Below are positions 4,308 to 28,487 of a stretch of DNA of 40,024 bases, piece after piece (position 1 is the stretch's first letter; the number at the start of each line of letters is the position of its first letter). The notes under the pieces were generated by a model. The model worked only from the letters and a program-made list of their open reading frames with translations. It made no database searches and was not told the DNA's origin. Both the position numbers and the translations under genes were made by a program. Location of the stretch: positions 1 through 40,024 of the forward strand of contig JAGAWN010000167.1 in the NCBI GenBank assembly GCA_017941355.1, written 5' to 3'. The stretch comes from Ruminiclostridium sp. (GTDB lineage Bacteria > Bacillota > Clostridia > Oscillospirales > Ruminococcaceae).

Positions 4308-4325
4308 TATGCCATACTATTGGGA

Positions 4326-4356: not shown

Positions 4357-4434
4357 ATATCATTACTTATCATTTTAGCAAATAACACAACCACTATTCA
4401 AGGGAATATATCCCAAGATAAGGATCTGATATAA

Positions 4435-5208
4435 ATGCTGATAATATTTGATAGCGATACTGAAAGTGCTGCACTTATTCGTCGAATACTGGAGGACGAG
4501 TGTAATGTTCCTCACCAATCAATTCAAGAAGTTATAGATGACCCCGTAAAACTTATTACAGTTATAAACAAGGATAAGCTCAGGCTTATAAATACAGTCT
4601 TTGTTGAAATATCTATGAAAACAAGATACAATGGAATAGATCTTGCTCAAAAAATTGTTAGGATAAATCCGGATATACATATAGTATTTACAACAGAGTA
4701 CGGAAAGTTCTACATTCAGCAGGCATTTCTGGATTGTTACGATGTTTACCCCTGCGCATACCTTGTGAAGCCTATTAACAAGTATTTTTTAAAGCGTACC
4801 ATTGAAAAAATCCGTTTCATGGATAAGAATAGGAACGTAATATGGATCAAAACACAAAGAACACTTATAAGTGTGAATGAGAATAATATCATATATATAA
4901 GCATTGATGGGCATTGTACTGCATTTCATTTGTCGAATCAAGTATATAGGTCCTACACAACAATTGAAGATGTTATTCCGAGTTTGCCCAAGTCTTTTGT
5001 TAGGTGTCACAAGAGCTATATAATAAATTCTTCTCATATTGTATCTTATGATCCTACATCAATAACACTTGCTGAAAACATAGTGATACCTATCAGCAGG
5101 GCATACAGACCAATAATAAAAGAACAACTTGAATTGATAACGATGTTTTCTAAAAATAGTAGTTCCGGTTCATCGTCACCACCGGCGCAGAATAAGGCTA
5201 AGATGTGA
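4435..5208 (+). CDS. LytTR-family response regulator with atypical receiver
   Basis: A 257-residue two-domain regulator. Residues 1-125 form a CheY-like receiver with the acidic pocket DSD (residues 6-8) and the conserved Lys in AYLVKPI. Residues 130-240 form a LytTR DNA-binding domain, with VIWIKTQRTLISVNENNIIYI, the SFVRCHKSYIIN signature and a C-terminal strand. At the phosphoacceptor position the sequence is VFVEISM, so Glu58 replaces the expected Asp. That argues for a constitutive or phosphorylation-independent regulator. The tail is Ser/Pro-rich. No histidine kinase lies in the window. It is the first gene of the T7SS/Tad cluster, with the next start only one base beyond its stop, and is probably that cluster's regulator. 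Its leader is reached by a promoter inside the invertible segment. Confidence 0.87.
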   Translation: MLIIFDSDTESAALIRRILEDECNVPHQSIQEVIDDPVKLITVINKDKLRLINTVFVEISMKTRYNGIDLAQKIVRINPDIHIVFTTEYGKFYIQQAFLDCYDVYPCAYLVKPINKYFLKRTIEKIRFMDKNRNVIWIKTQRTLISVNENNIIYISIDGHCTAFHLSNQVYRSYTTIEDVIPSLPKSFVRCHKSYIINSSHIVSYDPTSITLAENIVIPISRAYRPIIKEQLELITMFSKNSSSGSSSPPAQNKAKM

Positions 5209-5209
5209 T

Positions 5210-6226
5210 ATGCTGATATTAAAAGTTGTTTTAGCTGCACTGATAGGCTTGCTTGTAGGATACTTGACAAAATATTATGCAGGTTTGGTCTGTTTATCGG
5301 GCTCGCGGCTTTGTTCTGTTCGATCCTGTTGCTTGAGTTGTAAAAATGGGGTTCCTATAAAGGAGTGCTTTAAGCAGATAGTGCTACATAAGTCTTGTGT
5401 ATTATGTGGAAGAAAACTGTCATTCAAATATCATTTTATTGAGATTTGTGAAGCGGTTATTTTTGTGACAGGGGCAGTCTTTATTATAGATGATATAAAA
5501 CTGGTTATTTTCTGTGTACTTACTTCGCTTCTTACGATTACAAGTGTGGTTGATATAGAACTAATGAAAATCCCATATTTCTGTAGTATAGGTGTTTTTG
5601 CTGTTGGCATGATTGTATTGATAATTTCATTAGTTGTGGGGAGCAACTGGTGGAAAAATCAGTTATTAGGAGCGGCTTTTATAGCGGTGCTGTTTATAAT
5701 ACCGACCTTGTTTGGGAAAGCCGGAGGCGGAGATTTTCAATTACTGGTCGCATGGGGCTTTGTGTTAGGCGTAAAAGGAATTGTTATTGCTGTGCTGGTA
5801 ACAATAGTTGTTGGTTTTTGTAGGAGCCTGATCGCGGTATTAAGCGTTCCTCGACCTATTATCGACAGGTGTTCTTCTATGATAAAAGAAGTGTGTTTGG
5901 AATGGTACGATAAGCAGAAGACAGATGGCGTAGCCTTGCAAGAAGGTAAGACTGATACAATCTATTTCAATATTATAAATGAGAAAGTAAATGCTGATGA
6001 GACCTGTTGTAATATCGCTCAATGGTCAAATCATCCTGATATAATTGCATTTAAAGAGTTAATTGAGAGTAGTCTGGAAAAAAATATAGGTAAAATGGCA
6101 GTTGCTATCAAGTTGTCCACGGATGATAGTATCACCTTGAATCCACAGGTAAATTGTAAGAGAATAATTGCATTAGCACCATGTACTTCAGTCGGTATTT
6201 TAGTATCATATTTGCTGTGCATTTAG
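5210..6226 (+). CDS. Prepilin peptidase (A24 family) with C-terminal hydrophilic insert
   Basis: A 338-residue polytopic membrane aspartyl protease that removes leader peptides from type IV/Tad prepilins. It has the N-terminal cytoplasmic zinc-type region (CLSCKNGVP at about 41-49 and CVLCGRK at about 63-69). Both catalytic Asp motifs are present: SVVDIELMKIP at about 108-118 and GKAGGGDFQLL at about 168-178. About seven hydrophobic segments are visible. It is longer than typical TadV/CpaA enzymes because a soluble stretch of about 95 residues (around 220-315) is inserted before a last hydrophobic segment. It is almost fused to the LytTR gene (one base between stop and start). The substrates are presumably the three pilin-like proteins at 24464-25813. 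Confidence 0.88.
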   Translation: MLILKVVLAALIGLLVGYLTKYYAGLVCLSGSRLCSVRSCCLSCKNGVPIKECFKQIVLHKSCVLCGRKLSFKYHFIEICEAVIFVTGAVFIIDDIKLVIFCVLTSLLTITSVVDIELMKIPYFCSIGVFAVGMIVLIISLVVGSNWWKNQLLGAAFIAVLFIIPTLFGKAGGGDFQLLVAWGFVLGVKGIVIAVLVTIVVGFCRSLIAVLSVPRPIIDRCSSMIKEVCLEWYDKQKTDGVALQEGKTDTIYFNIINEKVNADETCCNIAQWSNHPDIIAFKELIESSLEKNIGKMAVAIKLSTDDSITLNPQVNCKRIIALAPCTSVGILVSYLLCI

Positions 6227-6373
6227 TCAAAAGCAGAAATTGCAGGAGAAGGCGCAAAAAATGCAGATTCTCTGTCGAGGACGATTTGTCCCACTATAAT
6301 GCACACTATGGTCGCTTTAGGCGACTGAAATTTGCAATTTTTAGCAGTAAAAACGCAAGTTTGGAAAGGTCTA

Positions 6374-6402
6374 TTGTAATCCTTATCATTATATGTTATT
6401 CT
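6374..6402 (+). promoter_or_regulatory. Candidate promoter for the WXG100 genes
   Basis: TTGTAA (6374-6379), 17-nt spacer, TATTCT (6397-6402), with TG one base upstream. An overlapping alternative is TTGGAA (6361-6366), 17 nt, TATCAT (6384-6389). Neither matches consensus fully. The 240-base gap 6227-6466 is the largest break in the cluster and also holds a 5-bp GTCGC/GCGAC hairpin at 6311-6325. No gene is evident in the gap. Confidence 0.45.
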
Positions 6403-6425
6403 ATAAACATAGCAAAACCGTAATG

Positions 6426-6452
6426 ATGGTAAAGCTAAACCAAAATTACCAT
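6426..6452 (+). promoter_or_regulatory. Hairpin abutting the WXG100 ribosome site
   Basis: ATGGTAA pairs with TTACCAT around a 13-nt A-rich loop. The right arm ends one base before AAGGAGGA, the ribosome site of the first WXG100 gene. It could stabilise the mRNA or modulate translation. The role is inferred. Confidence 0.4.
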
Positions 6453-6466
6453 AAGGAGGAATAAAT

Positions 6467-6766
6467 ATGGCAGTAATTAAGGTAACTCCGGACGAGTTGA
6501 GGGCGGAAGCAAAAAAGGTGAGAGATAAGGCAGCGGAGTATCAGCAGCTTTACAAGACTGAACTTTTGTCAAAGAACCTTGGTGATTTAGCCAACGTATG
6601 GTGGGGCGAAGATCAGTCGGCTTACTCAACAAGAGTAAAGGAATTTGAACCTAAATTCAATAATATGTATCAGCTTATGATCGATTATGCCGATCTTCTC
6701 GACAAAGCGGCTGGCGAATATGATCGTAACAGAACCGATCTTGCTGCTCAGATCAAACAGCGCTGA
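6467..6766 (+). CDS. WXG100 family protein (EsxA-like)
   Basis: A 99-residue helical-hairpin protein of the ESAT-6/WXG100 superfamily, the standard substrate class of type VII secretion. The turn motif is VWWGEDQS at about residues 44-51, flanked by two long amphipathic helices, and the C-terminal tail is charged. The length is exactly typical. The AAGGAGGA ribosome site is strong, as expected for an abundant product. It is followed 21 bases later by a second WXG100-like gene, a pairing that suggests a heterodimer. Family membership is clear; whether it is itself secreted by the EssC-type ATPase at 14640 is inferred. Confidence 0.92.
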   Translation: MAVIKVTPDELRAEAKKVRDKAAEYQQLYKTELLSKNLGDLANVWWGEDQSAYSTRVKEFEPKFNNMYQLMIDYADLLDKAAGEYDRNRTDLAAQIKQR

Positions 6767-6787
6767 TTATAAAAGGAGGATTTAACA

Positions 6788-7117
6788 ATGGCAGACGCAA
6801 CATATACACAGGGTATTCAAATCGAAGAAGCTAACTCTGTCGCAGGACAGATGCAGACAACAAACAACAACCTCGACAATAAGCTCAAAGAGATACTTCA
6901 GATCATGGAAAATATGCAGCCAAAGTGGAGCTCCCCTGCGGCGGATGATACAATAGCTCAGTTTAAAACTCTTAATGCAAGTTTTGAACAGTATAAGCAG
7001 AAGATTGACGGCTATGTATCGTTCATACAGAATCAGGTTACTGATGCATACAATCAGGGCGAAAAAGTTATTCAGGCTAATTTGGTTCAGGTTAAGCAGG
7101 ATGTTACTGTAGGTTAA
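6788..7117 (+). CDS. WXG100-like protein with degenerate WSS motif
   Basis: A 109-residue helical protein resembling WXG100 proteins in length and layout. The first helix has QIEEANSVAGQMQTTNN, the turn is PKWSSPAADD at about 48-57, and a second long helix follows. The central Trp is kept but the Gly is replaced by Ser (WSS instead of WXG). AAAGGAGGA precedes the ATG. It lies 21 bases after the canonical WXG100 gene and is probably its partner, as with EsxA/EsxB-type pairs. A hairpin at 7136-7164 follows and separates this short, probably highly expressed pair from the large genes downstream. Confidence 0.85.
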   Translation: MADATYTQGIQIEEANSVAGQMQTTNNNLDNKLKEILQIMENMQPKWSSPAADDTIAQFKTLNASFEQYKQKIDGYVSFIQNQVTDAYNQGEKVIQANLVQVKQDVTVG

Positions 7118-7135
7118 AATATTACGGACAACAGG

Positions 7136-7164
7136 TAGCCCGAATGTAAATATCATTCGGGCTA
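7136..7164 (+). terminator. Intra-operon hairpin (attenuator or processing site)
   Basis: An 11-bp perfect stem, TAGCCCGAATG with CATTCGGGCTA, around a 7-nt loop. No U-run follows, so it is more likely a partial terminator or an mRNA-stabilising structure that sets the ratio of WXG100 pair to downstream genes. Confidence 0.6.
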
Positions 7165-7192
7165 TATCGTTAAAAGACGGGGGGACGCAAAA

Positions 7193-9868
7193 ATGAAGAA
7201 GCCAATATCAATATTCCTTGCTGCTTCTATAGCAATACCGACAATTCTTACAGCAGTTTCCGGGTGCGTTAAGGCATCGGCTACAGATATAATGACTAAT
7301 GGTGAGCTGTTAGAGCTTATCAATAATAAATTCGGATTTGAGGGGTATGAATCCTCTGAGTCATATTACACAAGCGTTCCTTCAAGTGATGTTTTCTTTG
7401 ACGCAGTCCAGACTGCGCATGAATATGAAGTGCTTGATGAACTGGTGACAGATTTTAAGACAAGTGACGTCGTTACTCGTGAATTCTTTGCAATGGCTGC
7501 ATCAGGTGCTATTTATAATGACTATACGGACGAAATATCTATAAACGATATTTCGGATATTACATATAAAGATGATGTTCTTACCGTTTTGAATTACGGA
7601 ATAATGGAGCTTGATGGCGGTAAGTTTGAACCTAAGAAAACTATGAGCGGTGCGGAATGTGTTCTCCTTGTGGACGCCGCATTTGATATATGGACTAATT
7701 GTTCAGTAGTAAAGCCCAAATACGATGTACAGCTTAAAGATGGTGTAATTGATCTCGGCGGCGCTGGTATGTATTACTATGATGAGGATGCCGGTGAAAT
7801 GAAATTTGACGAGGATTCCTATAACCAAATAATAAGCAAACTTGAAAAGAACAACTACAGCTATGATCCGGATAGTGGTGTTGTGAAAATAGACTCGGTT
7901 TCTGATTTTGGAATCGAGGTTGGGTCGGTAATGACTGTCCCGACCGGTGATAAGCTAAATCCTTTCAGTATGGTTAAAGTCACAAATATTGAAAAGGACA
8001 GCGATGGACAGTACAAGCTTATTACAATAACACCAGAAATGCAAGAACTATATGAAACGTATAGTGTTGAACAGACTATAAAACCTGATTTGTCAAATGC
8101 GGGATATGTTTATGATTTGAATGGCAATTTACTTACTCCTGTTGCTGATGACAGCGAAAATATTGTAGGTGGAATGGGTCTTTGCAATGATAACATCTCG
8201 GATAATTATCTCTCAAATGGATTGATTACTTATGATGATTATACAAATAATATATATTCAAAAACTGCAGGTAAAACCAAAACCAAATATGAATTTGCAC
8301 ATGAAGATAAATCAAGCGGGTTAGGTATAAAAATCGGACTTACGGTTTCAGATGATTCCTTCTCAATAAGTGCCGGCGGCAGTATAAGTACACTTGATAA
8401 AAAACATGGCGGTAGCGATATAATAAAAGGCAGTATATCATATTCTGCTGAAGAAACTATAAAGAACATAAATGTTGACTATAAATATGATTTTTGGGGA
8501 GGTTATGCTAAAGTCGTACTGAGACATGATCATGTCTCAAAGGCATCTGCCAAAGGAAGTATAAAAGCAAGTATTCCTCTTTGCAAAATAGGGTGTCCTA
8601 CCGGAATCGGCGATCTTACGGTATGGATTACGCCAAAACTAAACATTGGTTTAGACGGAGAATTAAGTATTACCGTAACCAATTCCGGTGTTGCGAATGG
8701 ACTTGAATATCGACGTTGGCATGGCTTTAACAGTGTAAGTGATGAAGGAACAAAATCATTAGATGCAAAAGCAGAGGTAAAGATCGAAGCAACAGTAAGT
8801 GTTGATGTTAAAATAACTTGCTTAGCAGTGCTTGGCGTCGGTGTAGAACCAGAAGCAGGATTTGGCGCTCTTGCAAGCAGCGAGACAAATTTAATTGATA
8901 CTGGTGAAGAGAAACCGATATCGCTACAGTGTGTTGATGTCAAATGTTACCCTATTTTAAAAGCAAAGGTATACGGGGAGATTGACTTTTTCTTCGGTAA
9001 AGTAAAGAAAGAGTTTAGCTGGACGATTCTCGGAGAAAAGAATGTTATGCTTGAGATTCACCTTGAATCCCGTAGCGATATTCTAGATGAAGGATTAAAA
9101 ATAGTCCCTGAATGTACCAAAGATCAACTTATGAATATAAAGAAAGATAAAGAGACAGAACAAGCCGGGGTAAAAGTCGGAACAGAGCTGAAACTTACAG
9201 ATAAGAACAAAAGAGCTGATATTGGTTCACAGTTTTCTATAGGAATCACAGAAGTACCGTCTGGATATAACTATGAGGATATATATGTAAAAGTTGCAAA
9301 TTCAGAAGTGCTTGATATTAATAGTACAGTTGTAGCTGCAAACTATAAATCGAATCCTCTGCGCGAAGCCGCACTTAGTATGGCAGGTCCGGCAGGACGA
9401 ATAGTTAATGGAATCCTTGGCACAACAGCTGGTGTTGCACTTGATGGGTACAGCTGTTCCTTTACCGGAAAGACGCGGGGACAGACCATAATCACATTTG
9501 TTACTAAGGACGGAAAATACAAAGCTACCTGTGATGTAATTGTGTTGGATCCAAACGAACCGCTTGATTTAGATGTTAAGCTTGACACCTATGGAGTTAC
9601 AATACCCGAAAATACGTGTTATAAGTTTAATGTTGTCAAATTGCCGTGGTATCTAACTGAAGATAAGATAATTTGGTCAACGTCAGACGTTTCAGTTGTT
9701 ACCGTTGGTCAAAATGGCGTAGTTACAGCTGTAGGTGAAGGCTACGCTATGGTGACAGCATCTACGCCAGACGAAACATCAAAAGCGTATTGCAACATTA
9801 CCGTAAGCAGTACGGGTCAGGTATCATTGATGTTTATACCCGAAGCAATTGTCGAATATCAGATATAA
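7193..9868 (+). CDS. Large exported (probable lipo-) protein with C-terminal Big2-like domain
   Basis: An 891-residue protein. A basic, hydrophobic signal peptide at 1-25 ends in VSGC, a plausible lipobox with Cys25; signal peptidase I cleavage at KASA is the alternative. Residues 30-180 form an acidic region resembling S-layer-homology repeats. The middle is beta-rich and Gly/Ser-containing. The last about 85 residues form a bacterial Ig-like Big2 domain, with the hallmark KIIWSTSDVSVVTVGQNGVV and VGEGYAMVTAST. Ribosome site: GGGGGGA. It sits between the WXG100 pair and the secretion ATPases, so it could be a surface component of the machine or a substrate. The signal peptide suggests Sec export rather than type VII export. 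I do not recognise a named family for the whole protein. Confidence 0.85.
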   Translation: MKKPISIFLAASIAIPTILTAVSGCVKASATDIMTNGELLELINNKFGFEGYESSESYYTSVPSSDVFFDAVQTAHEYEVLDELVTDFKTSDVVTREFFAMAASGAIYNDYTDEISINDISDITYKDDVLTVLNYGIMELDGGKFEPKKTMSGAECVLLVDAAFDIWTNCSVVKPKYDVQLKDGVIDLGGAGMYYYDEDAGEMKFDEDSYNQIISKLEKNNYSYDPDSGVVKIDSVSDFGIEVGSVMTVPTGDKLNPFSMVKVTNIEKDSDGQYKLITITPEMQELYETYSVEQTIKPDLSNAGYVYDLNGNLLTPVADDSENIVGGMGLCNDNISDNYLSNGLITYDDYTNNIYSKTAGKTKTKYEFAHEDKSSGLGIKIGLTVSDDSFSISAGGSISTLDKKHGGSDIIKGSISYSAEETIKNINVDYKYDFWGGYAKVVLRHDHVSKASAKGSIKASIPLCKIGCPTGIGDLTVWITPKLNIGLDGELSITVTNSGVANGLEYRRWHGFNSVSDEGTKSLDAKAEVKIEATVSVDVKITCLAVLGVGVEPEAGFGALASSETNLIDTGEEKPISLQCVDVKCYPILKAKVYGEIDFFFGKVKKEFSWTILGEKNVMLEIHLESRSDILDEGLKIVPECTKDQLMNIKKDKETEQAGVKVGTELKLTDKNKRADIGSQFSIGITEVPSGYNYEDIYVKVANSEVLDINSTVVAANYKSNPLREAALSMAGPAGRIVNGILGTTAGVALDGYSCSFTGKTRGQTIITFVTKDGKYKATCDVIVLDPNEPLDLDVKLDTYGVTIPENTCYKFNVVKLPWYLTEDKIIWSTSDVSVVTVGQNGVVTAVGEGYAMVTASTPDETSKAYCNITVSSTGQVSLMFIPEAIVEYQI

Positions 9869-9876
9869 CCGATTTA

Positions 9877-9910
9877 TATCCCCGTAAATTCATAAAAATC
9901 TACGGGGATA
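9877..9910 (+). terminator. Intra-operon hairpin
   Basis: TATCCCCGTA pairs with TACGGGGATA around a 14-nt loop in the gap between two cluster genes. No U-run follows. It resembles the hairpin at 7136 in position and strength and may act in attenuation or mRNA processing. Confidence 0.55.
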
Positions 9911-9942
9911 AAGGTGTTTCTGCAAATAAAGGAGATAAGTTA

Positions 9943-10671
9943 ATGTTTGGCAAGGATAAAAAGTTAAAAGAGCTGAATGAGTGGAATTATGTAGAGGAAA
10001 AGAAAAAAGAGAAAGAAGAAGAGGAAGAGTACGTTGTAAGCAGCGAAAAAAAATTCCGGCTGCGGGCGCTTATTATAACGGCTGTACTGTGTATCGGTAT
10101 TGTTGCACTCGGCATAGTTTATATGAATAAGATCATTGAGACAACCAATGCTGAAGCAGTGGATAATACTGCTGTTTCAGATACTGCCGCGGCTGAAGAG
10201 AATACGGCGGCTACTTCTGAAAGCAAAACCACTACAGCTGCAACTTCAGATGCCGCCGTTAATAGCGATACTACTCCCTCTGTTTCAGAAACAACGACGG
10301 CTGAATTAACAGCTCAGGCAGCGGAAACAACTCAACCGGTGGAAGATTTTACTGCAACGGCGTATGCAGATAAAGACGGGTTGGTAGTAGAATGGACCTA
10401 TACGAATAGTGAGTATGCAGGAAAATTAATGTCCATATTTATGACTGACGGCGTTACAGCGTATTTGCCGGTAGGAGAAAACATACCGACCGATGCGAAA
10501 AAGTTTACTTCTACAGCGGAGAACGCAGAAAATGCGGTGGGTTTAGTTATTACGGTAACAAATACAAACGGCGATGTTCTATTAGAAAAAAATATCGTAG
10601 TAGATAATAGGACATATCAGCCGGAAGTTACTTACTCTGATGATATTGATATTGGGGAGCTGTTTAGATGA
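9943..10671 (+). CDS. Bitopic membrane protein with Thr-rich linker
   Basis: A 242-residue protein. A charged cytoplasmic region rich in Lys and Glu (EKKKEKEEEEEYV) at about 15-32 is followed by one membrane helix at about 44-62 (LIITAVLCIGIVALGIVYM). Then comes an extracellular Thr/Ala/Ser-rich linker at about 65-135 and a small beta-rich domain at about 140-242 (DKDGLVVEWTYTNSEYAG). The frame is open further upstream, but ATG 9943 has AAAGGAGA seven bases away and upstream sequence would overlap the previous gene. Its stop overlaps the next start by four bases (ATGA), indicating coupling. The layout (cytoplasmic tail, helix, wall-spanning linker, outer domain) suits a component that links the machine to the cell surface. 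It is not recognisably EsaA, EssA or EssB. Confidence 0.8.
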   Translation: MFGKDKKLKELNEWNYVEEKKKEKEEEEEYVVSSEKKFRLRALIITAVLCIGIVALGIVYMNKIIETTNAEAVDNTAVSDTAAAEENTAATSESKTTTAATSDAAVNSDTTPSVSETTTAELTAQAAETTQPVEDFTATAYADKDGLVVEWTYTNSEYAGKLMSIFMTDGVTAYLPVGENIPTDAKKFTSTAENAENAVGLVITVTNTNGDVLLEKNIVVDNRTYQPEVTYSDDIDIGELFR

Positions 10672-13502: not shown

Positions 13503-13521
13503 TCGCTGAGGTGGTGAAGAA

Positions 13522-19145: not shown

Positions 19146-19389
19146 GATATTGATCGAGGTTTACTTTCCGGCGATATATATAAGTTTTGATGTATATATT
19201 CCAGATGATGTTTCTTTTTACCGTATAACTTCAATGATAAAAAAGGTATCTGATAAGATAACAAATGGATTGTTTGTTCCGTCAGATGAAAACGTCTTAT
19301 GTGATATGGATACCGGACTTATACTTGATATAAATCAGACTGCGAGAGAACTGTGTCTGCACAACGGCTCAAAGCTGATGTTTATATAA
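19135..19389 (+). CDS. esaB: EsaB/YukD-like ubiquitin-fold protein
   Basis: An 84-residue protein with the beta-grasp layout of YukD/EsaB: two N-terminal strands (KILIEVYFPAIYISFDVYIP), a central helix (ITSMIKKVSDKIT) and C-terminal strands ending LHNGSKLMFI. The length is typical. The start is TTG at 19135, supported by GAGGTG at 19122-19127 with 7-nt spacing; no internal ATG would keep the fold. It overlaps the end of the EssC-type gene by 11 bases. EsaB proteins are small cytoplasmic regulators or accessories of type VII secretion, so its position directly after the ATPase supports the T7SS assignment. Confidence 0.8.
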   Translation: MRNKILIEVYFPAIYISFDVYIPDDVSFYRITSMIKKVSDKITNGLFVPSDENVLCDMDTGLILDINQTARELCLHNGSKLMFI

Positions 19390-19408
19390 AAGAAAGGATA
19401 CAAATAAA

Positions 19409-20206
19409 ATGAGACTGATAAAAAACAGATTAGTGATTGGCTGTATTTGCATTATATTGGCTTTTGCACTTGGCTTTTTGGGTGTTCCGTTCTTGGTGGA
19501 TAAGATGAGCGATAAGGTCAATGTAGTAGTTGCAAATCAGGATATACCTAAAGGTACAAAACTCGAAGAAGGTATGTTCAGGATCATAGAGGTTAGTCAG
19601 GGCGATCTGCCGTATGTTGCTGCCGATCTTTATGAATCAATTACCGGAAAGGCTGCAAGTGGAAATAAAGGAGCAGCCGGTTCAAGCAGCATTTTTGTTA
19701 AGGAAAGTTCAGAAGCAAAGTATGCAGCAGTGCAGATAAGTAAAAACGACTATGTTTCACGACAGAAAATAACATCAACCATACCCTACAAGGATAAAGA
19801 ATTAAGGGAACTGGGGGAAAATGAATATGCTGTAACTATCTCAGTCAGCGCACTGGATGCATCAGTAGCCGGTAAGGTTAGAGCCGGTGATGTTATTACC
19901 CCGATGATAATATCCGGTAACGGAAATGATACGAAAGCGAATGTTTATGATGAGATCCGTTATATGGAAATAATATCTGTTTCTAATAAGGACGGTGCTG
20001 ACATAAGTTCAAGCAACAGTGAGAGTCTGCCGGCTGTAGTTACATTAAAATGCAACTTTGATCAGGCTGCTATGTTAGCGCAGTTAAACTCAAGCCACAA
20101 AATACATTTAGCATTTGCTGCTCACGCGGAAAGTGAAAGAGCCGCTGAATTGCTTAAAACTCAGGCTGATTTCTTCAACTCCACGAATGGAGGGAACGGT
20201 CAATGA
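19409..20206 (+). CDS. cpaB: CpaB/RcpC-like Tad pilus protein with SAF domain
   Basis: A 265-residue protein with an N-terminal membrane helix at about 7-31 (LVIGCICIILAFALGFLGVPFLV), followed by an SAF-type domain (VNVVVANQDIPKGTKLEEGMF at about 38-58). A CpaB/RcpC domain with VRAGDVITPMI and VTLKCNFDQAAMLAQL follows. The order matches CpaB of Gram-positive Tad loci, which assists pilus assembly outside the membrane. The AAAGAAAGGA ribosome site is acceptable. The gene overlaps the next by four bases. Its immediate position after EssC and EsaB is the junction where the type VII half of the cluster becomes the Tad half. Confidence 0.85.
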   Translation: MRLIKNRLVIGCICIILAFALGFLGVPFLVDKMSDKVNVVVANQDIPKGTKLEEGMFRIIEVSQGDLPYVAADLYESITGKAASGNKGAAGSSSIFVKESSEAKYAAVQISKNDYVSRQKITSTIPYKDKELRELGENEYAVTISVSALDASVAGKVRAGDVITPMIISGNGNDTKANVYDEIRYMEIISVSNKDGADISSSNSESLPAVVTLKCNFDQAAMLAQLNSSHKIHLAFAAHAESERAAELLKTQADFFNSTNGGNGQ

Positions 20207-20946
20207 GCGGTAAAATAGTATGCTTTTGGGGAAGTCCCGGCAGCGGTAAGACTATAATGGCGCTTGCTGTTGCATCAGCTTTATCCAAAAAGAAAAAGAA
20301 TGTTATTGTTTTTTCCGGGGACAAACTCACGCCTTCATTAAAAGTATATCTTCCTACAGTTGATATTACTGCTCAAAAGTCAATTGGTCCCTTGTTAATG
20401 TCAAATAGGTATGACGATTCTGATCTTGCGACGAGAATGATAGTGCATCCGGATACCGAATATATTTGTTTTGCGGGCATGGCACCCAGCGATAATTATA
20501 TTACATATCAGGAGTTTTCGCGGGAAAGCGTTGTAAGACTCGCAAACAAATTTGCAAGTTATTCTGATTATGTTTTAATAGACGGTGTTTCAAATCCTTT
20601 GGAAGATACTATGACACTTGCTATGCTTGAGTTGTCAGATGTTACGGTTCGTTCTATGACAGCTGACGGCAAAGGTATTATGTATTCAGAAGCCAACAAG
20701 ACTATATATCGTGACGCGAAATTCAGATATGATGAACAAATAACAGTTCTCGGTAATGTGAAAGAAGTTTCTCCCTATGCTGAGATCATAGCGATAATGG
20801 GCAATTTTGACTATGTTCTTGAATATTCATACGAGGCTGAAGATAAGATGAATGCCGGAAAGCTGTTAAGAGATTTTAACCGCTCAAAAGGTGTTAAATT
20901 TGAAAAAACAATAAATAAGCTCACTGAAAGGATTGAAGGAGTTTGA
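20203..20946 (+). CDS. TadZ/CpaE-like P-loop ATPase
   Basis: A 247-residue cytoplasmic ATPase with Walker A WGSPGSGKT at about 8-16 and a Walker B-like strand (YVLIDGVSN) at about 125-133. Its length and neighbours fit the MinD/ParA-like TadZ/CpaE proteins that position the Tad apparatus. Unlike classical members it lacks the signature Lys of the deviant Walker A (KGGxGKT), and it has no N-terminal receiver-like domain, so it is a reduced or divergent version. It overlaps the upstream gene by ATGA and the downstream gene by TTGA, so the three are translationally coupled. Confidence 0.72.
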   Translation: MSGKIVCFWGSPGSGKTIMALAVASALSKKKKNVIVFSGDKLTPSLKVYLPTVDITAQKSIGPLLMSNRYDDSDLATRMIVHPDTEYICFAGMAPSDNYITYQEFSRESVVRLANKFASYSDYVLIDGVSNPLEDTMTLAMLELSDVTVRSMTADGKGIMYSEANKTIYRDAKFRYDEQITVLGNVKEVSPYAEIIAIMGNFDYVLEYSYEAEDKMNAGKLLRDFNRSKGVKFEKTINKLTERIEGV

Positions 20947-22520
20947 GTCCGGATTTAGATAGTTTTCTTGCATCCCGCAAGACAGATTATTCCTACGCCG
21001 ATATTCTTACAGGTACACAGGAATTCATATCAAGTACATATCAGGATCTGCTGTCAGGCGAAATTGGCGCTGATGATAAAAGACTGATCAAGGATTACAT
21101 ACGTCAATATCTTATTACCAAAAATTTACGACTCGCAGGTGGAATGACAACTGATGACCTGACCGATATGTTATATAAGGATATGGCTGAGTTTTCATTC
21201 ATAACCGACTGGCTTGAAAATGCTGCCGACATGAGGCTGGAAGAAATAAATATCAATGCTTGGAATGATATTGAGATCATAACAGCGGGATCCCGAAGAA
21301 AAGCAAAGGCAAGTTTTCTTTCGCCGCAGCACGCAATAGATGTTGTAAGAAGAATGCTCCAGTCAAGTGATACCGTTATTGATGACGCAAGACCTACTGC
21401 GCTTGGTTCACTTGCAAAGAACATTCGTATAACAGTATTAAAAACGCCTGTGCTTGATGATGATATTGGTGTAGCTGCCTCTATCAGAATTATTTCGGAG
21501 GTAAGCTTTACTCGCGAAAACCTTGCAGGTAATACTGCCTCAAATGAAATGCTGGATTTCTTGTCAACTGTTATAAAGTATGGAATAAGTGTATGTATTG
21601 CAGGAAACACCGGTTCAGGAAAGACATCGACCGCAAGCTGGATCTTGTCCACAATCCCATATAATAAAAGAATATACACAATAGAGGAAGGAAGCCGTGA
21701 ATTTGATCTTATCAAATATGATGAAAACGGAAAGCCGATAAATAGTGTTATTCACACATTGACGAAGACAACTATTGATCACAGCGAGGATATAACGCAG
21801 GAAGATCTGCTGGACTTTTCTTTGAGATTTGACCCTGATGTTATATGTGTCGGTGAGATGCGAAGCCGTGAAGCATTTGCTGCGCAGGAAGCAGCGCGTA
21901 CCGGTCATACAGTTATAACAACTATTCATGCCAAATCTGCTATGGGTGCGTATATGCGTATGACCACGCTTGCAAAAAGAGCATACGAATTTACTGATGA
22001 AACTTTGATGAAGCTGATGATCGAAGCATTTCCGATAATTGTGTATCAGCGACAGTTAGAGGACGGAAGCAGAAAAATCACTGAGATCATCGAAGGACAG
22101 GGGTTTGCACACGGTAAAGTTGAATACAGGACATTATTCAAGTATGTAGTCGATGACAATATAATAAATGGTGACAAAACAACAGTTATCGGTCATTTTG
22201 AGCGAGAAAGACCGATAAGTGCAGCTTTGATGGAAGAACTGCTTCAGAATGGAGCGCCAAAATCTGTTTTAGATAATCTGACAGGTTTTGAAGATAATTA
22301 TACTGGAACAAGAACGGATTATCAAACAAGGCAAAGGGAAGCTATTATAAAAAGTATGGCAGAAAATGCCCAGTTACGCACAGAAGCAGTTCGTGATGAC
22401 TCCGTTTCATTGCAGGATAGTACGATATCGAACTATAATGATTATAGTTCTACTTATGGAACTAAAGAATCGGAAGACCCTCTTCCACCGCCGGAGGAAA
22501 AATTAGATTTCATGTTCTGA
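20943..22520 (+). CDS. cpaF: CpaF/TadA secretion ATPase
   Basis: A 525-residue type II/IV secretion hexameric ATPase that powers Tad pilus assembly. Walker A is AGNTGSGKT at about 219-227. The Asp/Glu box and Walker B lie around FDPDVICVGEMRS at about 297-309. The His box reads TGHTVITTIHA at about 319-329. The N-terminal helical domain (residues 1-170) is typical of CpaF. The C-terminal about 100 residues are poorly conserved, Ser/Asp-rich and end PLPPPEEKLDFMF. The start is TTG overlapping the preceding stop (TTGA); GAAGGAG ends only one base upstream, so initiation probably relies on translational coupling. Confidence 0.93.
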   Translation: MSPDLDSFLASRKTDYSYADILTGTQEFISSTYQDLLSGEIGADDKRLIKDYIRQYLITKNLRLAGGMTTDDLTDMLYKDMAEFSFITDWLENAADMRLEEININAWNDIEIITAGSRRKAKASFLSPQHAIDVVRRMLQSSDTVIDDARPTALGSLAKNIRITVLKTPVLDDDIGVAASIRIISEVSFTRENLAGNTASNEMLDFLSTVIKYGISVCIAGNTGSGKTSTASWILSTIPYNKRIYTIEEGSREFDLIKYDENGKPINSVIHTLTKTTIDHSEDITQEDLLDFSLRFDPDVICVGEMRSREAFAAQEAARTGHTVITTIHAKSAMGAYMRMTTLAKRAYEFTDETLMKLMIEAFPIIVYQRQLEDGSRKITEIIEGQGFAHGKVEYRTLFKYVVDDNIINGDKTTVIGHFERERPISAALMEELLQNGAPKSVLDNLTGFEDNYTGTRTDYQTRQREAIIKSMAENAQLRTEAVRDDSVSLQDSTISNYNDYSSTYGTKESEDPLPPPEEKLDFMF

Positions 22521-22570
22521 TTATATCATTTGGATATGGTTTGCAAATATGTGACAAGGTGAATATAACT

Positions 22571-23539
22571 ATGGTAATAATTATAGCTCAAATAGCAATA
22601 ATTTTGTTGCTTGTAATAGGAATTTGGCTTATATCGGAAATAAAAATTCGTGAAATTCGCCCCGAAGCGAAGAAACTTGCAAAGTCCGTTATAGCTGATT
22701 ATAACAAGAAAAAACTAAATAAGCATATAAGTATTAAGAAACAGGTTGAAGCACTTACAAATATTAAGAAGAAGAATTTTCTTGTTGAAAGTTTTAACGA
22801 AGCTCGTGTGATACTGACTTCACAGCGGCGCGGTGACAGAATCGGTAGAATTTATGTTATAAGCGGGATTTGCGGAGCAGTTGGATTGGTATTAGCTTTG
22901 CTGTCTTCTAACATTCTTCTTATTCCTGTTTTCACAATTGGGTTTACATTAGTCCCGGTATGGGTTATAAAGCTGTCGCGAGCAAGCATAAGAAAATCAC
23001 TGAATGATGAGCTTGAAGTTGCATTGTCCGGAATCACTACATCTTATATGAGAAACGACAGTATTATAGCTGCTGTAGAAGAAAATTTGCAGATATTAAA
23101 CAATCCGATAAAGCCGGTGTTTGTGAAGTTCGTAAATGAATACAAGCTTGTAGATTCAAACGTTGTTACCGGAGTCCGCAAGATGAAGCAAGCTATAAAT
23201 CACGAAATATTCTCCGAGTGGTGCGATGCTATAATTCAGTGCCAAAATGACAGATCGCTCAAAACTACGCTATTCCCTATCATTAATAAGTTTTCTGACA
23301 TTAAGTCAGTTCAGGCAGAACTGGATACGATGATGATGGCACCTTTCAGAGAATATATGACTATGGTTGCGGTTCTGTTGCTGATTTTCCCTATATTATA
23401 TATAGTGAATCGCGAAATGTTCGATATTCTTACAACTACAGACGCGGGAAAAGTAATTCTTGCCGTAATAAGTATTATAGTATTTTTAGGTTTGAATAAG
23501 GCTGTAAATCTGTCTGAACCGATAGAATACAGAAGATAA
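22571..23539 (+). CDS. tadB: TadB-like inner-membrane platform protein
   Basis: A 322-residue membrane protein of the T2SSF/TadB class. There is one N-terminal hydrophobic helix (VIIIAQIAIILLLVIGIWLIS), then a basic cytoplasmic stretch. A pair of membrane helices lies at about 95-140, followed by a helical-bundle cytoplasmic domain (LNDELEVALSGITTSYMRNDSIIAAVEE), then two C-terminal helices at about 260-310. The frame opens at 22541, but AAGGTGA at 22556-22562 serves the ATG at 22571, and a 10-residue extension would add nothing. It follows the CpaF ATPase and precedes TadC, the canonical Tad order. Confidence 0.85.
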   Translation: MVIIIAQIAIILLLVIGIWLISEIKIREIRPEAKKLAKSVIADYNKKKLNKHISIKKQVEALTNIKKKNFLVESFNEARVILTSQRRGDRIGRIYVISGICGAVGLVLALLSSNILLIPVFTIGFTLVPVWVIKLSRASIRKSLNDELEVALSGITTSYMRNDSIIAAVEENLQILNNPIKPVFVKFVNEYKLVDSNVVTGVRKMKQAINHEIFSEWCDAIIQCQNDRSLKTTLFPIINKFSDIKSVQAELDTMMMAPFREYMTMVAVLLLIFPILYIVNREMFDILTTTDAGKVILAVISIIVFLGLNKAVNLSEPIEYRR

Positions 23540-23557
23540 CAGAAATGGAAAAGTAAT

Positions 23558-24445
23558 ATGACAGAAGTTATACAAAACGGCACTAAGATATTAGGGGCTC
23601 TAATAGCTGTCTTCCTGACATTAGGAATATACTTTATTATTACAGAGTTCGTTGTTACACCGAGTAAAAGCGCGAGTAAGGCTATCCTATCCATAAACAA
23701 GAAAAAACAAACGATCGGAGACCAGATAGTATATCCTATCGCAAATAAAATAGTAAAGTTAATACATTTATCGCCTGAGCGGTATTCGTTATACCAAAAA
23801 AAGATATACGCTGCTGAACTTGAGTACACTCCGGAATTTTATGTGGCTAAAGCCCTTGCTCTCTCAATTATAATATTTGCTTTTGGTATTGTTCTCAGCA
23901 TTATTACTCCGATATTCTTTTTCGGGTGTATAGTTCTTGCGGTTGTTTCATATTTTATGGTTCTACAGGAAGCTGACAAGATCATAAGAGAGAAAAGTGA
24001 AAAGATACAGGGTGAGCTTGTGCTGTTTGCAAGTACAATACAAACACAGCTCGCTACTTCAAGAGATATTATAAAGATATTTGAAAGTTATCGGAAAATA
24101 TGCGGGACAACAATGCAGCATGAGCTTGATGTTACACTTGCAGATATGAAAACCGGTAGTTATGAATCCGCTTTGAGAAGATTCGAGTCACGATTGCAGT
24201 CACAAAGTTTATCTGAAATAATAAGAGGGCTTCTTGGTGTTTTGCGTGGTGATGATCAGCGTGCATATTTCGATATGTTGGTTCATGATCTTGTTATCAA
24301 GGAACGAGAAAGACTGAAAAGAAACGCAGCTGAGAGACCGAACAAGATCAAACTCTTTACAATACTAACACTTGGCGCTATAGCTGTAATAATCGTTTAT
24401 GTATTAGGGTATAGGATTATTACATCTTTATATACAATGTTTTAA
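23558..24445 (+). CDS. tadC: TadC-like inner-membrane platform protein
   Basis: A 295-residue T2SSF/TadC-type protein with membrane segments at about 13-32, two at about 105-145 and one at the C terminus (FTILTLGAIAVIIVYVLGYRI). The cytoplasmic region between them carries the F-domain helical pattern (ELVLFASTIQTQLATSRDIIKIFESY and SLSEIIRGLLGVLRGDDQRAYFDML). It pairs with TadB to form the platform on which CpaF acts. Spacing to the TadB gene is 18 bases and to the pilin gene 18 bases, so all are co-transcribed. Confidence 0.85.
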   Translation: MTEVIQNGTKILGALIAVFLTLGIYFIITEFVVTPSKSASKAILSINKKKQTIGDQIVYPIANKIVKLIHLSPERYSLYQKKIYAAELEYTPEFYVAKALALSIIIFAFGIVLSIITPIFFFGCIVLAVVSYFMVLQEADKIIREKSEKIQGELVLFASTIQTQLATSRDIIKIFESYRKICGTTMQHELDVTLADMKTGSYESALRRFESRLQSQSLSEIIRGLLGVLRGDDQRAYFDMLVHDLVIKERERLKRNAAERPNKIKLFTILTLGAIAVIIVYVLGYRIITSLYTMF

Positions 24446-24463
24446 GGAAAGGGGGTACGAGAG

Positions 24464-24742
24464 ATGTCAGATATGGTCATTAAAGCCAAATCCGCAGTAA
24501 TTGCAGGTTGGTACTCTTTCAAAAACCGTGTTAAGCGTAATTTCGTTATTAACAACGGTGACGGTTGGACAGATCTGCTTATTAAAATTGGCATAGCTGT
24601 ACTGATAGGCGGACTTGTTATCGCGTTTATCAATATCTTGATACCTGATTTGTTCGAGAAGGTTAGAGAATGGATATTCAGTCTGTTTGATTTCAGCGAT
24701 GCAGCAGGCGGAGCAGGTGGAGCTGGCGGCGAAGGCGGCTAA
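24464..24742 (+). CDS. Flp-like major pilin candidate
   Basis: A 92-residue protein with a long basic N-terminal leader (residues 1-30), the motif NNGDGWTD, and then a hydrophobic helix (LLIKIGIAVLIGGLVIAFINIL) at about 38-60. A short amphipathic segment and a Gly/Ala-rich tail (AAGGAGGAGGEGG) follow. This is the layout of Flp/Tad pilins cleaved just before the helix. It is followed by a strong hairpin at 24763-24790, often seen after an abundantly expressed pilin gene. AAAGGGGG is the ribosome site. The cleavage site is likely after a Gly in NNGDG, but the exact position is inferred. Confidence 0.72.
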   Translation: MSDMVIKAKSAVIAGWYSFKNRVKRNFVINNGDGWTDLLIKIGIAVLIGGLVIAFINILIPDLFEKVREWIFSLFDFSDAAGGAGGAGGEGG

Positions 24743-24762
24743 TAGGAGAACAATAATGTATT

Positions 24763-24790
24763 GAACGCGCCGCTCATTTGCGGCACGTTC
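24763..24790 (+). terminator. Hairpin after the pilin gene
   Basis: GAACGCGCCGC pairs with GCGGCACGTTC (one mismatch) around a 6-nt loop, without a U-run. Probably a partial terminator or RNA-stabilising hairpin that raises pilin mRNA over the distal genes. Confidence 0.6.
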
Positions 24791-24825
24791 ATATGTTATT
24801 ATATCACGCCGAAATGAGGATTTGT

Positions 24826-25278
24826 ATGTTTAATCTTAAAAACTTAAAAAACAATAAAGGCGATATGTACATAGATACGCTTATAAGTATTTTTATCATA
24901 TCCGCATTTATAGCAATAATTATAATCGTAACACCTATATTCATCAGAATATATCACATAAATCAATTTGCAGACAGAATATCGGATTTCATTGCAGTAT
25001 CCGGCGGTACGGCAGGAATAAACGTTGAAGAGTTGGCTGATGAAATGAATGTGTCAATGGATAGATACGAGATAATAGTCGCAGACGATGCGATATGCTT
25101 GCCAGATCAGGCACATCCGGAAAAAATACAGCTGACGTGTCAATATACTGTAAATGTCTATTCTACAGTATATATTGGATTGGGGGGGATAGTTGACTCT
25201 ATCCCGATCGGCATTTCTTCATCAGCTAAAGGGCGAAGTGAAGTATATTGGAAGGAACTGGAATCTGTTACTCCGTAA
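24826..25278 (+). CDS. TadE/TadF-like pseudopilin
   Basis: A 150-residue protein: short leader MFNLKNLKNNKGDMYID, a hydrophobic helix (LISIFIISAFIAIIIIVTPIFI) at about 18-40, then a soluble mixed alpha/beta domain. The start is ATG 24826, preceded by GAGGA; the upstream open frame would include the 24763 hairpin. The NNKGD motif immediately before the helix resembles that of the pilin at 24464 and the next gene, consistent with cleavage by the prepilin peptidase. TadE/TadF proteins are minor pseudopilins; the assignment rests on layout and position, not on a strong domain match. Confidence 0.65.
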   Translation: MFNLKNLKNNKGDMYIDTLISIFIISAFIAIIIIVTPIFIRIYHINQFADRISDFIAVSGGTAGINVEELADEMNVSMDRYEIIVADDAICLPDQAHPEKIQLTCQYTVNVYSTVYIGLGGIVDSIPIGISSSAKGRSEVYWKELESVTP

Positions 25279-25282
25279 AAAT

Positions 25283-25813
25283 ATGAAGATAAAAGTTGAG
25301 AAATTATTAAACAATAAAGGTTCTTCACCGGTATCGTCAATAATAATTATTTTAATCCTTGTTATGGTTTTTATTTTGATATTTGAAGTTTTTATCCTTT
25401 ATTCTATTTCAGATAAAATCCATGAATGTGTTGAACACTCAATAAAGACGATAACAACGATGAACGAAACCAATATTTATGCTAATCTGCGTGAAAACGT
25501 GCTTGAACTTGACACTGAAGATATAAATAACCTGATAACAACTGATGAACTGATTGATCAGGTATGCAGTGAGCTCGGACTGACTAATAACAGTGGCAGA
25601 TTATACAAGAATGTCAGCAACGGCGGTTACGGATATGTGATCTACGACGTTAATGTTGAAAACGTATATATCGATTCTGCCAACACACTTTGCTTTGAAG
25701 CAACCGGTAAGATCGACATACCTTTAAACATATTTAAGGATATAGCACCGGATCTTACTATTGATTTGAATGTGAAGTCGCTGTATGCGTCAAAGTTAAG
25801 AGCAGTTCAGTAG
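25283..25813 (+). CDS. Pilin-like minor subunit
   Basis: A 176-residue protein starting MKIKVEKLLNNKGSSPVSS, followed by a hydrophobic helix (IIIILILVMVFILIFEVFILY) at about 20-40 and a soluble domain of about 130 residues with mixed structure. The leader again contains NNKG before the helix, matching its two upstream neighbours. The ATG at 25283 lies four bases after the previous stop; the ribosome site is weak, suggesting coupling. A Glu lies within the helix, as in TadE/F proteins. Likely a minor pilin or assembly tip protein. Confidence 0.65.
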   Translation: MKIKVEKLLNNKGSSPVSSIIIILILVMVFILIFEVFILYSISDKIHECVEHSIKTITTMNETNIYANLRENVLELDTEDINNLITTDELIDQVCSELGLTNNSGRLYKNVSNGGYGYVIYDVNVENVYIDSANTLCFEATGKIDIPLNIFKDIAPDLTIDLNVKSLYASKLRAVQ

Positions 25814-25827
25814 TAAGGGGTGTTATA

Positions 25828-26499
25828 ATGAAGGACTTGTTAAAAGACTTAATCGGAGAGGGCGGTTATCCATTAAATAAAAAGATAAGATCATACCCAA
25901 AGAGGCTGAAGCGCGCAGTTATCGGAGTTGTTATATATGATATAGTTGTACTAATATTTTTAGGGTTAGCTGTTATTCGCAGTCTAGGAAATGACACTCC
26001 TGTGATTGTTTTAATTGTCATTTGTGGGCTTAATCTTGCAATTGCATTTTTTATCAGCTTTTATGTTATTAAGAGTAATGTAGAAAGAAATAAAACAGTT
26101 TATGCAGCCATGATCAAAATTATAGAAGAAGGAAAGTATTTGGATTATCCAATTCCCGAAAAACCAAACTTAGGGAAATTATATTTTGCTAATATTTTTT
26201 TTACTGACTGTAGAACTTACTTTATTCCTTATTCAAGCGTTATCTGGATTTATAAAAACATTGAATATGTAAATGTTAGACCTTATGGAATAAGATTTAA
26301 AAACGGTACATTCTATACGGTTATAGCAAAAGGAATAAAGGGGAGCTGGACTATTTGGCTTCCGTGGAGTGAGCGAAAGGTAAAAAAGGCAATTGAAAAT
26401 TATTTTTTACCGAGAAACCCAAAACTCATTGTTGGATATAGCAAAGAGATAGAAGAGTATATAAATAGATATATGAGCGAATCCAATCAACAGGGTTAA
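25828..26499 (+). CDS. Small membrane protein with PH-like C-terminal domain
   Basis: A 223-residue protein with two adjacent membrane helices at about 31-50 and 60-82, followed by a cytoplasmic domain of about 120 residues. That domain has strand-rich text such as TYFIPYSSVIWIYKNIEYVNVRPYGIRFKNGTFYTVI, reminiscent of YcxB/bPH-type domains. AAGGGG precedes the ATG. It is the last gene tightly spaced with the Tad genes (15-base gap), so it may belong to the cluster, but it is not a known Tad or T7SS component and may be an unrelated passenger. Confidence 0.7.
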   Translation: MKDLLKDLIGEGGYPLNKKIRSYPKRLKRAVIGVVIYDIVVLIFLGLAVIRSLGNDTPVIVLIVICGLNLAIAFFISFYVIKSNVERNKTVYAAMIKIIEEGKYLDYPIPEKPNLGKLYFANIFFTDCRTYFIPYSSVIWIYKNIEYVNVRPYGIRFKNGTFYTVIAKGIKGSWTIWLPWSERKVKKAIENYFLPRNPKLIVGYSKEIEEYINRYMSESNQQG

Positions 26500-27548: not shown

Positions 27549-27551
27549 TAT

Positions 27552-28458: not shown

Positions 28459-28487
28459 AATGCAAAGGCTTAGAGTCTTTGCATTTA
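28459..28487. terminator. Bidirectional terminator between converging genes
   Basis: AATGCAAAG pairs with CTTTGCATT around a 9-nt loop, with U-rich sequence on the plus-strand side. It lies between the end of the plus-strand operon and the stop of the minus-strand XRE gene, which it overlaps by three bases. Confidence 0.7.

What the first reader, a model, noticed from the sequence alone, without database searches (positions are those of the whole stretch)
4435..26499. Hybrid type VII secretion and Tad pilus locus
WXG100 proteins, an EssC-type ATPase and an EsaB-like protein are interleaved with prepilin peptidase, CpaB, TadZ-like, CpaF, TadB, TadC and three pilin-like proteins, all on one strand. 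Many starts overlap the preceding stop, including across the EssC/EsaB boundary. The peptidase lies upstream of the WXG100 genes and the remaining Tad genes downstream of EssC, so this is not two neighbouring loci by chance. The two machines may be mechanically or regulatorily joined, for example a Tad platform standing in for missing T7SS membrane parts, or a pilus that delivers T7 substrates.
Basis: partly seen in the sequence, partly recalled or inferred. Interest (0 to 1): 0.88.

Follow-up and report, generated by a model that had tools for sequence, protein, structure and literature searches.

The report
Type VII secretion genes inside Tad operon
A bacterium of the Ruminococcus family carries the genes of a protein-export machine (type VII secretion) threaded through the genes of an adhesive pilus (Tad), and a relative pairs the same pilus lineage with a different export machine, which suggests, without proving, that the two work together.

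Summary
In detail: one strand of 4435-26499 carries EssC, an EsaB-like protein and a WXG100 pair interleaved with a monoderm Tad/Flp set. T7SS loci beside Tad genes are already in print for T7SSg and T7SSh (PMC11217815); its authors could not say whether this is coincidence. Our locus is neither: its EssC keeps the FHA-bearing N-terminal region, degenerate, and no DUF5050 propeller is found. The order was seen in none of 62 other EssC stretches (15 are cut short on a side). One relative, G055 (Ruminococcus sp. MAG), has the sister Tad block (CpaF 67% identical; CpaF, TadB, TadC and TadZ trees agree) beside an EssC of another lineage (AU p 4e-58; rejected in three EssC segments). So one Tad lineage has had two T7SS partners. 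With T7SSg-like loci, at least three EssC and two CpaF lineages became neighbours; a DUF5050 propeller marks 8 of 9 Tad-linked stretches against 1 of 54 others. Both machines also live apart. Best reading: a co-expressed pilus and secretion apparatus, functionally coupled but not one fused channel. A physical hybrid is possible, not shown.

The parts
4435..5208 (+). LytTR response regulator
   Evidence: PF04397 2e-17, Response_reg 5e-6 below cut-off; LytTR genes occur in 14 of 62 EssC stretches and 0 of 31 ordinary Tad stretches
5210..6226 (+). prepilin peptidase (A24), 1 base after the LytTR gene
   Evidence: PF01478 1e-9
6467..6766 (+). WXG100 protein 1
   Evidence: PF06013 40.6 bits, TIGR03930 45.8 bits, both over cut-off
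6788..7117 (+). WXG100-like protein 2 (WSS in place of WXG; YNQGE near the C-terminus)
   Evidence: PF06013 1e-5, below cut-off; NF035934 65 bits, below its 100-bit cut-off
7193..9868 (+). lipoprotein with Big_2 domain, T7SS-associated
   Evidence: PF02368 1e-5; homologue by the WXG pair in L033 (1e-23), weaker in L037 and L051 (5e-5, 4e-5); lipobox read by eye
9943..10671 (+). single-TM protein, 242 aa; start set by the AAAGGAGA site (ORF listing gives 9790)
   Evidence: sequence and hydropathy; no family
10668..13502 (+). large Sec-exported protein; C-terminal domain shared with proteins of other Tad loci
   Evidence: residues about 880-935 match ~590-aa Tad-locus proteins at domain E down to 1e-14; Sec944-like gene in 17 of 31 ordinary Tad stretches
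13522..14640 (+). Zn-ribbon plus kinase-like protein without HxD/DFG residues
   Evidence: Zn-ribbon matches below cut-off; profile with its G055 homologue matches Ser/Thr kinases at 3e-22 to 2e-9, hhalign 93%; PDB match weak, 0.03; motif absence by eye
14640..19145 (+). EssC ATPase with degenerate N-terminal FHA region
   Evidence: TIGR03928 1004 bits; aligns end to end with L033 EssC, 39%; FHA 0.013 below cut-off at 112-174, where L033 and L041 score 1e-17 and 3e-13
19135..19389 (+). EsaB/YukD-like protein
   Evidence: 33% identical to L033 EsaB, which passes YukD PF08817
19409..20206 (+). CpaB
   Evidence: RcpC 8e-9 and SAF 2e-7
20203..20946 (+). TadZ-like P-loop ATPase without receiver domain
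   Evidence: 53% identical to the G055 protein; weak AAA/ParA matches
20943..22520 (+). CpaF
   Evidence: T2SSE 2e-28; 67% identical to G055 CpaF
22541..23539 (+). TadB-like membrane protein
   Evidence: 4 hydrophobic segments; 43% identical to G055; no T2SSF match in the 8 members scanned
23558..24445 (+). TadC-like membrane protein
   Evidence: 43% identical to G055; T2SSF in 2 of 10 members scanned, not in the window protein
24464..24742 (+). Flp-like pilin (NNG|DGWTD)
   Evidence: DUF6133 3e-4 below cut-off; prepilin-like start read by eye
24820..25278 (+). pilin-like protein (NNKG|DMYID)
   Evidence: DUF4320 5e-11; start set by hand, the ORF listing gives 24778
25283..25813 (+). pilin-like protein (NNKG|SSPVS)
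   Evidence: DUF4320 0.0016, below cut-off; start set by hand, the ORF listing gives 25193
25828..26499 (+). membrane protein, DUF6709-like
   Evidence: PF20456 7e-6, just below cut-off
28459..28485 (+). longest terminator-like hairpin on this strand (12 pairs)

Best explanation
The locus is one co-directional, probably co-transcribed cluster encoding a full monoderm Tad/Flp pilus and a small T7SS core (EssC, EsaB, WXG100 pair, lipoprotein). Shown: gene content, interleaving, and that the same Tad lineage is paired with two different EssC lineages in two genomes. Inferred: a LytTR regulator drives both; the pilus makes surface or cell contact while EssC exports the WXG pair and unknown effectors; coupling is by shared expression and perhaps by a cytoplasmic kinase-like adaptor (the Zn-ribbon pseudokinase here; a kinase and/or DUF5050 propeller in the other Tad-linked loci), not by one shared channel. 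It works like a contact-dependent pilus plus secretion pair, as reported for the Kil (Tad-like) pilus and T3SS* of Myxococcus.
For: Overlapping starts and no long internal terminator. Window and G055 group together in trees of CpaF (SH-aLRT 99), TadB (96), TadC (89) and TadZ (98), whereas one clade for their EssC is rejected (AU p 4e-58; three separate segments 5e-31, 9e-7, 7e-6). Three EssC and two CpaF lineages are linked. DUF5050 propeller near EssC in 8 of 8 Tad-linked stretches other than the window, 1 of 54 other EssC stretches and 0 of 31 ordinary Tad stretches. Full-length Zn-ribbon kinase-like homologue found only in G055 among the loci searched. LytTR genes go with EssC loci, not with ordinary Tad loci. 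Precedent: PMC12075869 (abstract, outline and one passage seen).
Against: No expression or phenotype data. A weak 5-pair terminator-like hairpin (19365-19377) and a promoter-like match (19381-19410) sit at the EsaB/CpaB border. No excess of genomes holding both machines: 2 of 247 in the family against 2.3 expected. Order seen only in the window. T7SSg-type CpaF has no T7SS genes nearby in 2 of 8 genomes. The window lacks the propeller that marks the other linked loci. The window's Tad lineage has only two members known to me, both draft assemblies. The trees are short searches and some branches are long. No LXG protein found in G000, so effectors are unknown.
Confidence: 0.5

Rival explanations
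1. Two independent surface machines share a locus and perhaps a promoter or regulator, as cargo of a genomic island or through a shared niche, with no functional joint.
For: Both machines occur alone. A tyrosine integrase and repeats lie just upstream and G+C shifts at about 29.5 kb. No genome-level co-occurrence beyond chance in the family. Weak terminator-like and promoter-like matches at the EsaB/CpaB border.
Against: Interleaving rather than adjacency; a different T7SS partner beside the same Tad lineage; repeated linkage in other families; propeller marker.
Confidence: 0.33
2. A physical hybrid: EssC/EsaB engage the Tad platform (CpaF/TadB/TadC), which replaces missing T7SS membrane parts, or the pilus carries T7 substrates.
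For: No EssB/YukC match in G000 and no EssA/EsaA-type match among the locus proteins scanned; EssC-EsaB sit directly before CpaB; the kinase-like gene is next to EssC here and next to CpaB in G055.
Against: Tad-free relatives of this EssC also lack YukC (G209, G112), and the Tad set looks complete without T7 genes. No complex could be modelled (structure prediction unavailable).
Confidence: 0.12
3. Assembly chimera joining a T7SS contig to a Tad contig.
For: Draft genome of 300 contigs, larger (4.5 Mb) than the genus members listed (2.0-2.8 Mb), 3.97% contamination.
Against: Genes of the two machines alternate, with overlapping or nearly touching ends; base composition is smooth through the locus; G055 independently links the same Tad lineage to an EssC on one contig.
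Confidence: 0.03

Closest known systems
T7SSg (Garrett, Higginson and Palmer 2024, PMC11217815)
   Same: Two WXG100 proteins, EsaB-like protein, EssC-type ATPase, full Tad set adjacent.
   Different: T7SSg ATPase lacks FHA and has TsgL (DUF5050); here EssC keeps a degenerate FHA region, no propeller is found, and T7 genes are interleaved with Tad genes. The T7SSg-like loci found here (L100, L101, L106, L107, L108, L155/L156) belong to another EssC clade; five of them are in another CpaF clade of the tree, the sixth (G634) matches that clade's CpaF profile.
T7SSh / T7SSi (same paper)
   Same: T7SSh: Tad adjacent, kinase-like protein. T7SSi: FHA on the ATPase with poor phosphothreonine motif, LytR-like regulator.
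   Different: T7SSh ATPase lacks FHA. Both have an EspG-like chaperone, not detected here. Their sequences could not be fetched by name.
Cluster of G055 (Ruminococcus sp. MAG U.3_5, L041, identical to L065)
   Same: Sister Tad block, Sec protein, Zn-ribbon kinase-like protein, LytTR regulator, EssC on the same strand.
   Different: EssC of another lineage, placed after the pilins behind a kinase-propeller gene.
EssC-EsaB-WXG pair loci of the same family (L033, L035, L036, L049, L051, L063)
   Same: Closest EssC clade, EsaB, WXG pair, in L033 also the Big_2 lipoprotein.
   Different: No Tad genes in the stretches; L033, L035 and L036 have Ser/Thr kinase, PPM phosphatase or FHA proteins.
Myxococcus Kil Tad-like pilus with T3SS* (PMC12075869)
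   Same: A Tad pilus functionally linked to a separate secretion machine.
   Different: Diderm predator, T3SS-like rather than T7SS; analogy only.

Membership tests
T7SS (general) | EssC/EccC ATPase plus WXG100 protein | tested here: met
   TIGR03928 and TIGR03930 over cut-off
T7SSb | EssB/YukC | tested here: not met
   PF10140: none in G000 at E 0.01
T7SSb | EsaA and EssA | tested here: inconclusive
   no such match among locus proteins in Pfam; rest of genome not searched
T7SSg | ATPase without FHA | tested here: not met
   window EssC aligns end to end with FHA-bearing L033 EssC; its own FHA match is weak (0.013). In contrast 4 of 4 T7SSg-like EssC N-termini scanned have no FHA match
T7SSg | TsgL DUF5050 propeller | tested here: not met
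   no match in window ORFs
T7SSg | adjacent full Tad set | tested here: met
T7SSh | ATPase without FHA | tested here: not met
   as for T7SSg
T7SSi | FHA on ATPase with poor motif and LytR-like regulator | tested here: met
   LytTR firm; FHA region by alignment, motif not found by a recalled pattern
T7SSi | EspG-like chaperone; kinase-like protein with C-terminal TM | tested here: inconclusive
   no EspG match in Pfam; kinase-like protein has no TM by hydropathy
T7SSi | ATPase in the T7SSi clade | not testable with these tools
   genome collections not searchable by name
T7SSe/f | PPM phosphatase and DUF6382-FHA protein | tested here: not met
   no such protein among locus genes
Tad/Flp pilus | CpaF ATPase, CpaB, prepilin peptidase | tested here: met
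Tad/Flp pilus | TadB/TadC platform | tested here: inconclusive
   by position, TM pattern and relatives; T2SSF only in 2 of 10 TadC members and none of 8 TadB members scanned
Tad/Flp pilus | Flp pilin with prepilin cleavage site | tested here: inconclusive
   motif read by eye; DUF6133 below cut-off

The most novel reading that the evidence does not exclude
Tad pilus and T7SS form one compound contact-dependent delivery machine in several Clostridia, assembled at one site through kinase-like or propeller adaptors that read EssC on one side and the Tad motor on the other; the pilus lineage is the constant part and the T7SS an exchangeable module.
Probability: 0.13. Interest if true: 0.88.

Novelty: new variant of a known kind. 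Interest (0 to 1): 0.6.

Why it matters
The authors who described T7SSg and T7SSh left open whether Tad adjacency is functional or coincidental. A Tad lineage that carries two different T7SS lineages, and an interleaved operon, make coincidence less likely. They also give concrete test objects: the kinase-like protein, the DUF5050 propeller and the LytTR regulator.

Tried and rejected
Considered and rejected: chance adjacency; strict order conservation (0 of 62 EssC stretches; 15 of the 62 reach under 3 kb on one side of EssC); a simple rule that an active kinase goes with an intact EssC FHA motif (no clean pattern); plasmid carriage (CpaF matches 6 plasmid records, EssC 27, each under 60% identity; the genus tallies share no genus); viral contigs (nothing). 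The genome-contig scan used only two short patterns and returned 2 loci: G055's own contig (L065, identical to L041, not counted) and an Acidaminobacter Tad locus. PDB searches gave weak or chance matches for EsaB, the kinase-like protein and TadC. The CpaF class search scored at most 3 candidates per genome and missed divergent T7SSg-type CpaF, so its co-occurrence count (5 of 393 against 3.4 expected) understates linkage. L103 (G634) counts as unlinked in the 20-kb tables; its Tad block is about 13 kb away. Lone TadZ-like matches (L043, L044, L113) were not counted as Tad linkage. Of the 31 ordinary Tad stretches 7 are under 8 kb, so absence of EssC there is weaker. Fisher values ignore shared ancestry; the propeller contrast rests on about two independent lineages and its profile was built from the linked loci. 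Motif patterns used in scripts or by eye (kinase, FHA, PPM, YxxxE, prepilin) are recalled.
Full report
What is there. The window is a whole 40,024-base contig, C47 of the genome G000 (4.52 Mb, 300 contigs). From 4435 to 26499 the main genes lie on the + strand: LytTR regulator, prepilin peptidase, two WXG100-type proteins, a Big_2 lipoprotein, a single-TM protein, a large Sec protein, a Zn-ribbon kinase-like protein, EssC, EsaB, CpaB, TadZ-like, CpaF, TadB-like, TadC-like, three pilin-like proteins and a DUF6709-like membrane protein. Gene ends overlap or lie close, with the largest gap (240 bases) before WXG1. The one long + strand terminator-like hairpin is at 28459-28485, beyond a Macro/SseB gene, a DUF1810 gene and a small gene that may belong to the same transcript. 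Shorter terminator-like hairpins (5-6 pairs) occur inside, one of them (19365-19377) at the EsaB/CpaB border beside a promoter-like match. Such matches are not much more frequent than in shuffles, but that border is where a separate Tad transcript could begin.

Which genes belong to which machine. In the family sample EssC was found in 30 of 247 genomes, and 32 stretches were fetched around it. The closest EssC loci carry EssC-EsaB plus a WXG pair (L033, L035, L036, L049, L051, L063) and, in L033, the Big_2 lipoprotein, without Tad genes. The 31 ordinary Tad stretches (L066, L068-L087, L118-L127) carry CpaF with other Tad genes as far as their contigs reach and, in 17 of 31, a Sec protein sharing the C-terminal domain of the 10668-13502 product. 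None of the 31 shows EssC or the Zn-ribbon kinase-like gene; 7 of them are under 8 kb. So the WXG pair, lipoprotein, EssC and EsaB come from a T7SS, and the Sec protein and CpaB-to-pilins from a Tad locus.

The key relative. G055 (L041; identical to the contig named Ruminococcus sp. isolate U.3_5, checked) has LytTR, histidine kinase, peptidase, Sec protein, Zn-ribbon kinase-like protein, CpaB, TadZ, CpaF, TadB, TadC, Flp, two DUF4320-like proteins, a Ser/Thr kinase fused to a DUF5050 propeller, then EssC; the contig ends 48 bases later. Here the kinase-like gene is followed by CpaB; in the window EssC-EsaB stand between them. CpaF is 67% identical. Trees of CpaF, TadB, TadC and TadZ put the pair together (SH-aLRT 99, 96, 89, 98). 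EssC does not: holding window and G055 EssC together costs 387 log-likelihood units (AU p 4e-58), and the same holds for three separate EssC segments. The nearest other Tad block in the TadB, TadC and TadZ trees (L080, G114) comes from a genome without an EssC match. So the T7SS beside this Tad lineage was exchanged, or acquired twice.

How general is it. In 393 class genomes at least 90% complete, EssC occurs in 33. Stretches around EssC in all 33 were examined (window). Tad genes lie inside the stretch in 8: G000, G744, G786, G840, G883 and G951 on the same strand, G707 and G897 convergent. G634 has them about 13 kb away on the same strand. I did not extend the other 24. Apart from G000, these 8 genomes lie in one EssC clade; seven of them are one CpaF clade and the eighth, G634, matches its CpaF profile. 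Six (not G707 and G897) have a short EssC of 1283-1313 aa; four of these N-termini were scanned and have no FHA match, while L095 (G707) has a strong one. DUF5050 is confirmed by Pfam in L041, L095, L100, L106, L107 and L155. These six thus fit the published T7SSg. The CpaF profile found that type in 8 of 293 class genomes; six are linked to a T7SS and two (G686, G796) are not. In the EssC tree the Tad-linked label needs 4 changes, one of them due to G634, so at least three lineages. In the CpaF tree it needs 2. A rough chance expectation for linkage is 0.04 of 33 (it assumes 0.2 Tad loci per genome and 3.3 Mb).

A marker. A propeller profile made from the Tad-linked loci finds DUF5050-type proteins near EssC in 8 of 8 Tad-linked stretches other than the window, in 1 of 54 other EssC stretches (L116; confirmed by Pfam), in 0 of 31 ordinary Tad stretches and in no window ORF. 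Only about two independent lineages stand behind the 8, and the profile was built from them. The window instead has the Zn-ribbon kinase-like protein: with its G055 homologue it forms a profile that matches Ser/Thr kinases (3e-22 to 2e-9; hhalign 93%), but PDB matches are weak and no model could be made. It lacks the HxD and DFG residues by eye. In T7SSb the pseudokinase EssB binds the FHA domains of EssC, as told in PMC11217815. A comparable joint here is inference, and this protein shows no TM helix.

Regulation. LytTR genes occur in 14 of 62 EssC stretches, within 3 kb of EssC in 11, and in 0 of 31 ordinary Tad stretches. In the window the LytTR gene is 1 base from the prepilin peptidase gene. 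This suggests, but does not show, one regulator over both machines.

Against the coupled reading. No genome-level co-occurrence beyond chance in the family (2 against 2.3 expected). The order is seen only in the window. Each machine lives alone elsewhere. Only two members of this Tad lineage are known to me. G000 has only the two WXG100 matches of this locus and no LXG match, so cargo is unknown.

Known or new. T7SS-Tad adjacency is published: PMC11217815 (abstract, passages, Results parts 1-2 of 3 and Discussion read) reports full Tad sets beside T7SSg in all organisms and Tad genes beside T7SSh, and says it is unclear whether they are linked. My searches listed no other paper on T7SS-Tad linkage; one search listed 20 of 138 hits and one search listed 10 of 80, titles and abstract starts only. 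This locus fits none of the types T7SSb, e, f, g and h tested here; T7SSi could not be settled; c, d and j were not tested. PMC12075869 (abstract, outline and one passage seen) reports that Kil pilus tips depend on a T3SS-like complex, a precedent for a Tad pilus working with another secretion machine. I file the locus as a new variant of a known kind.

Noticed in passing
window 2943-4367: Tyrosine integrase gene (3138-4256) flanked by 42-nt inverted repeats (86% complementary), just upstream of the LytTR gene: a small mobile element or an invertible segment.
   Followed up: no
window 26541-29416: Macro-SseB, DUF1810, a small gene and a YpsA/SLOG-like gene (below cut-off) follow the pilus genes on the same strand; the first three lie before the long terminator-like hairpin.
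   Followed up: partly
window 29500-40024: G+C rises from about 38% to 46%, with a PD-(D/E)XK transposase-type ORF, a second integrase, a serine recombinase and tRNA-Asn.
   Followed up: no
window 9878-9909: Perfect 9-bp stem without T-run between the lipoprotein and TM-protein genes (position); possible processing hairpin.
   Followed up: no
G000:C129 (L068, 3557 bases): A second Tad CpaF of ordinary type in the same genome.
   Followed up: partly
L157 (G055:C23, 6426 bases): FHA-ABC, PPM phosphatase, kinase-like and WXG100 genes (named by eye; WXG100); it may continue the G055 T7SS, but the contig ends do not overlap.
   Followed up: partly
L044 6878-7945: A TadZ-like receiver-ATPase gene next to an EssC without other Tad genes, as reported for T7SSf TsfV.
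   Followed up: no
window 545-2329: ResIII-type helicase ORF upstream of the integrase.
   Followed up: no
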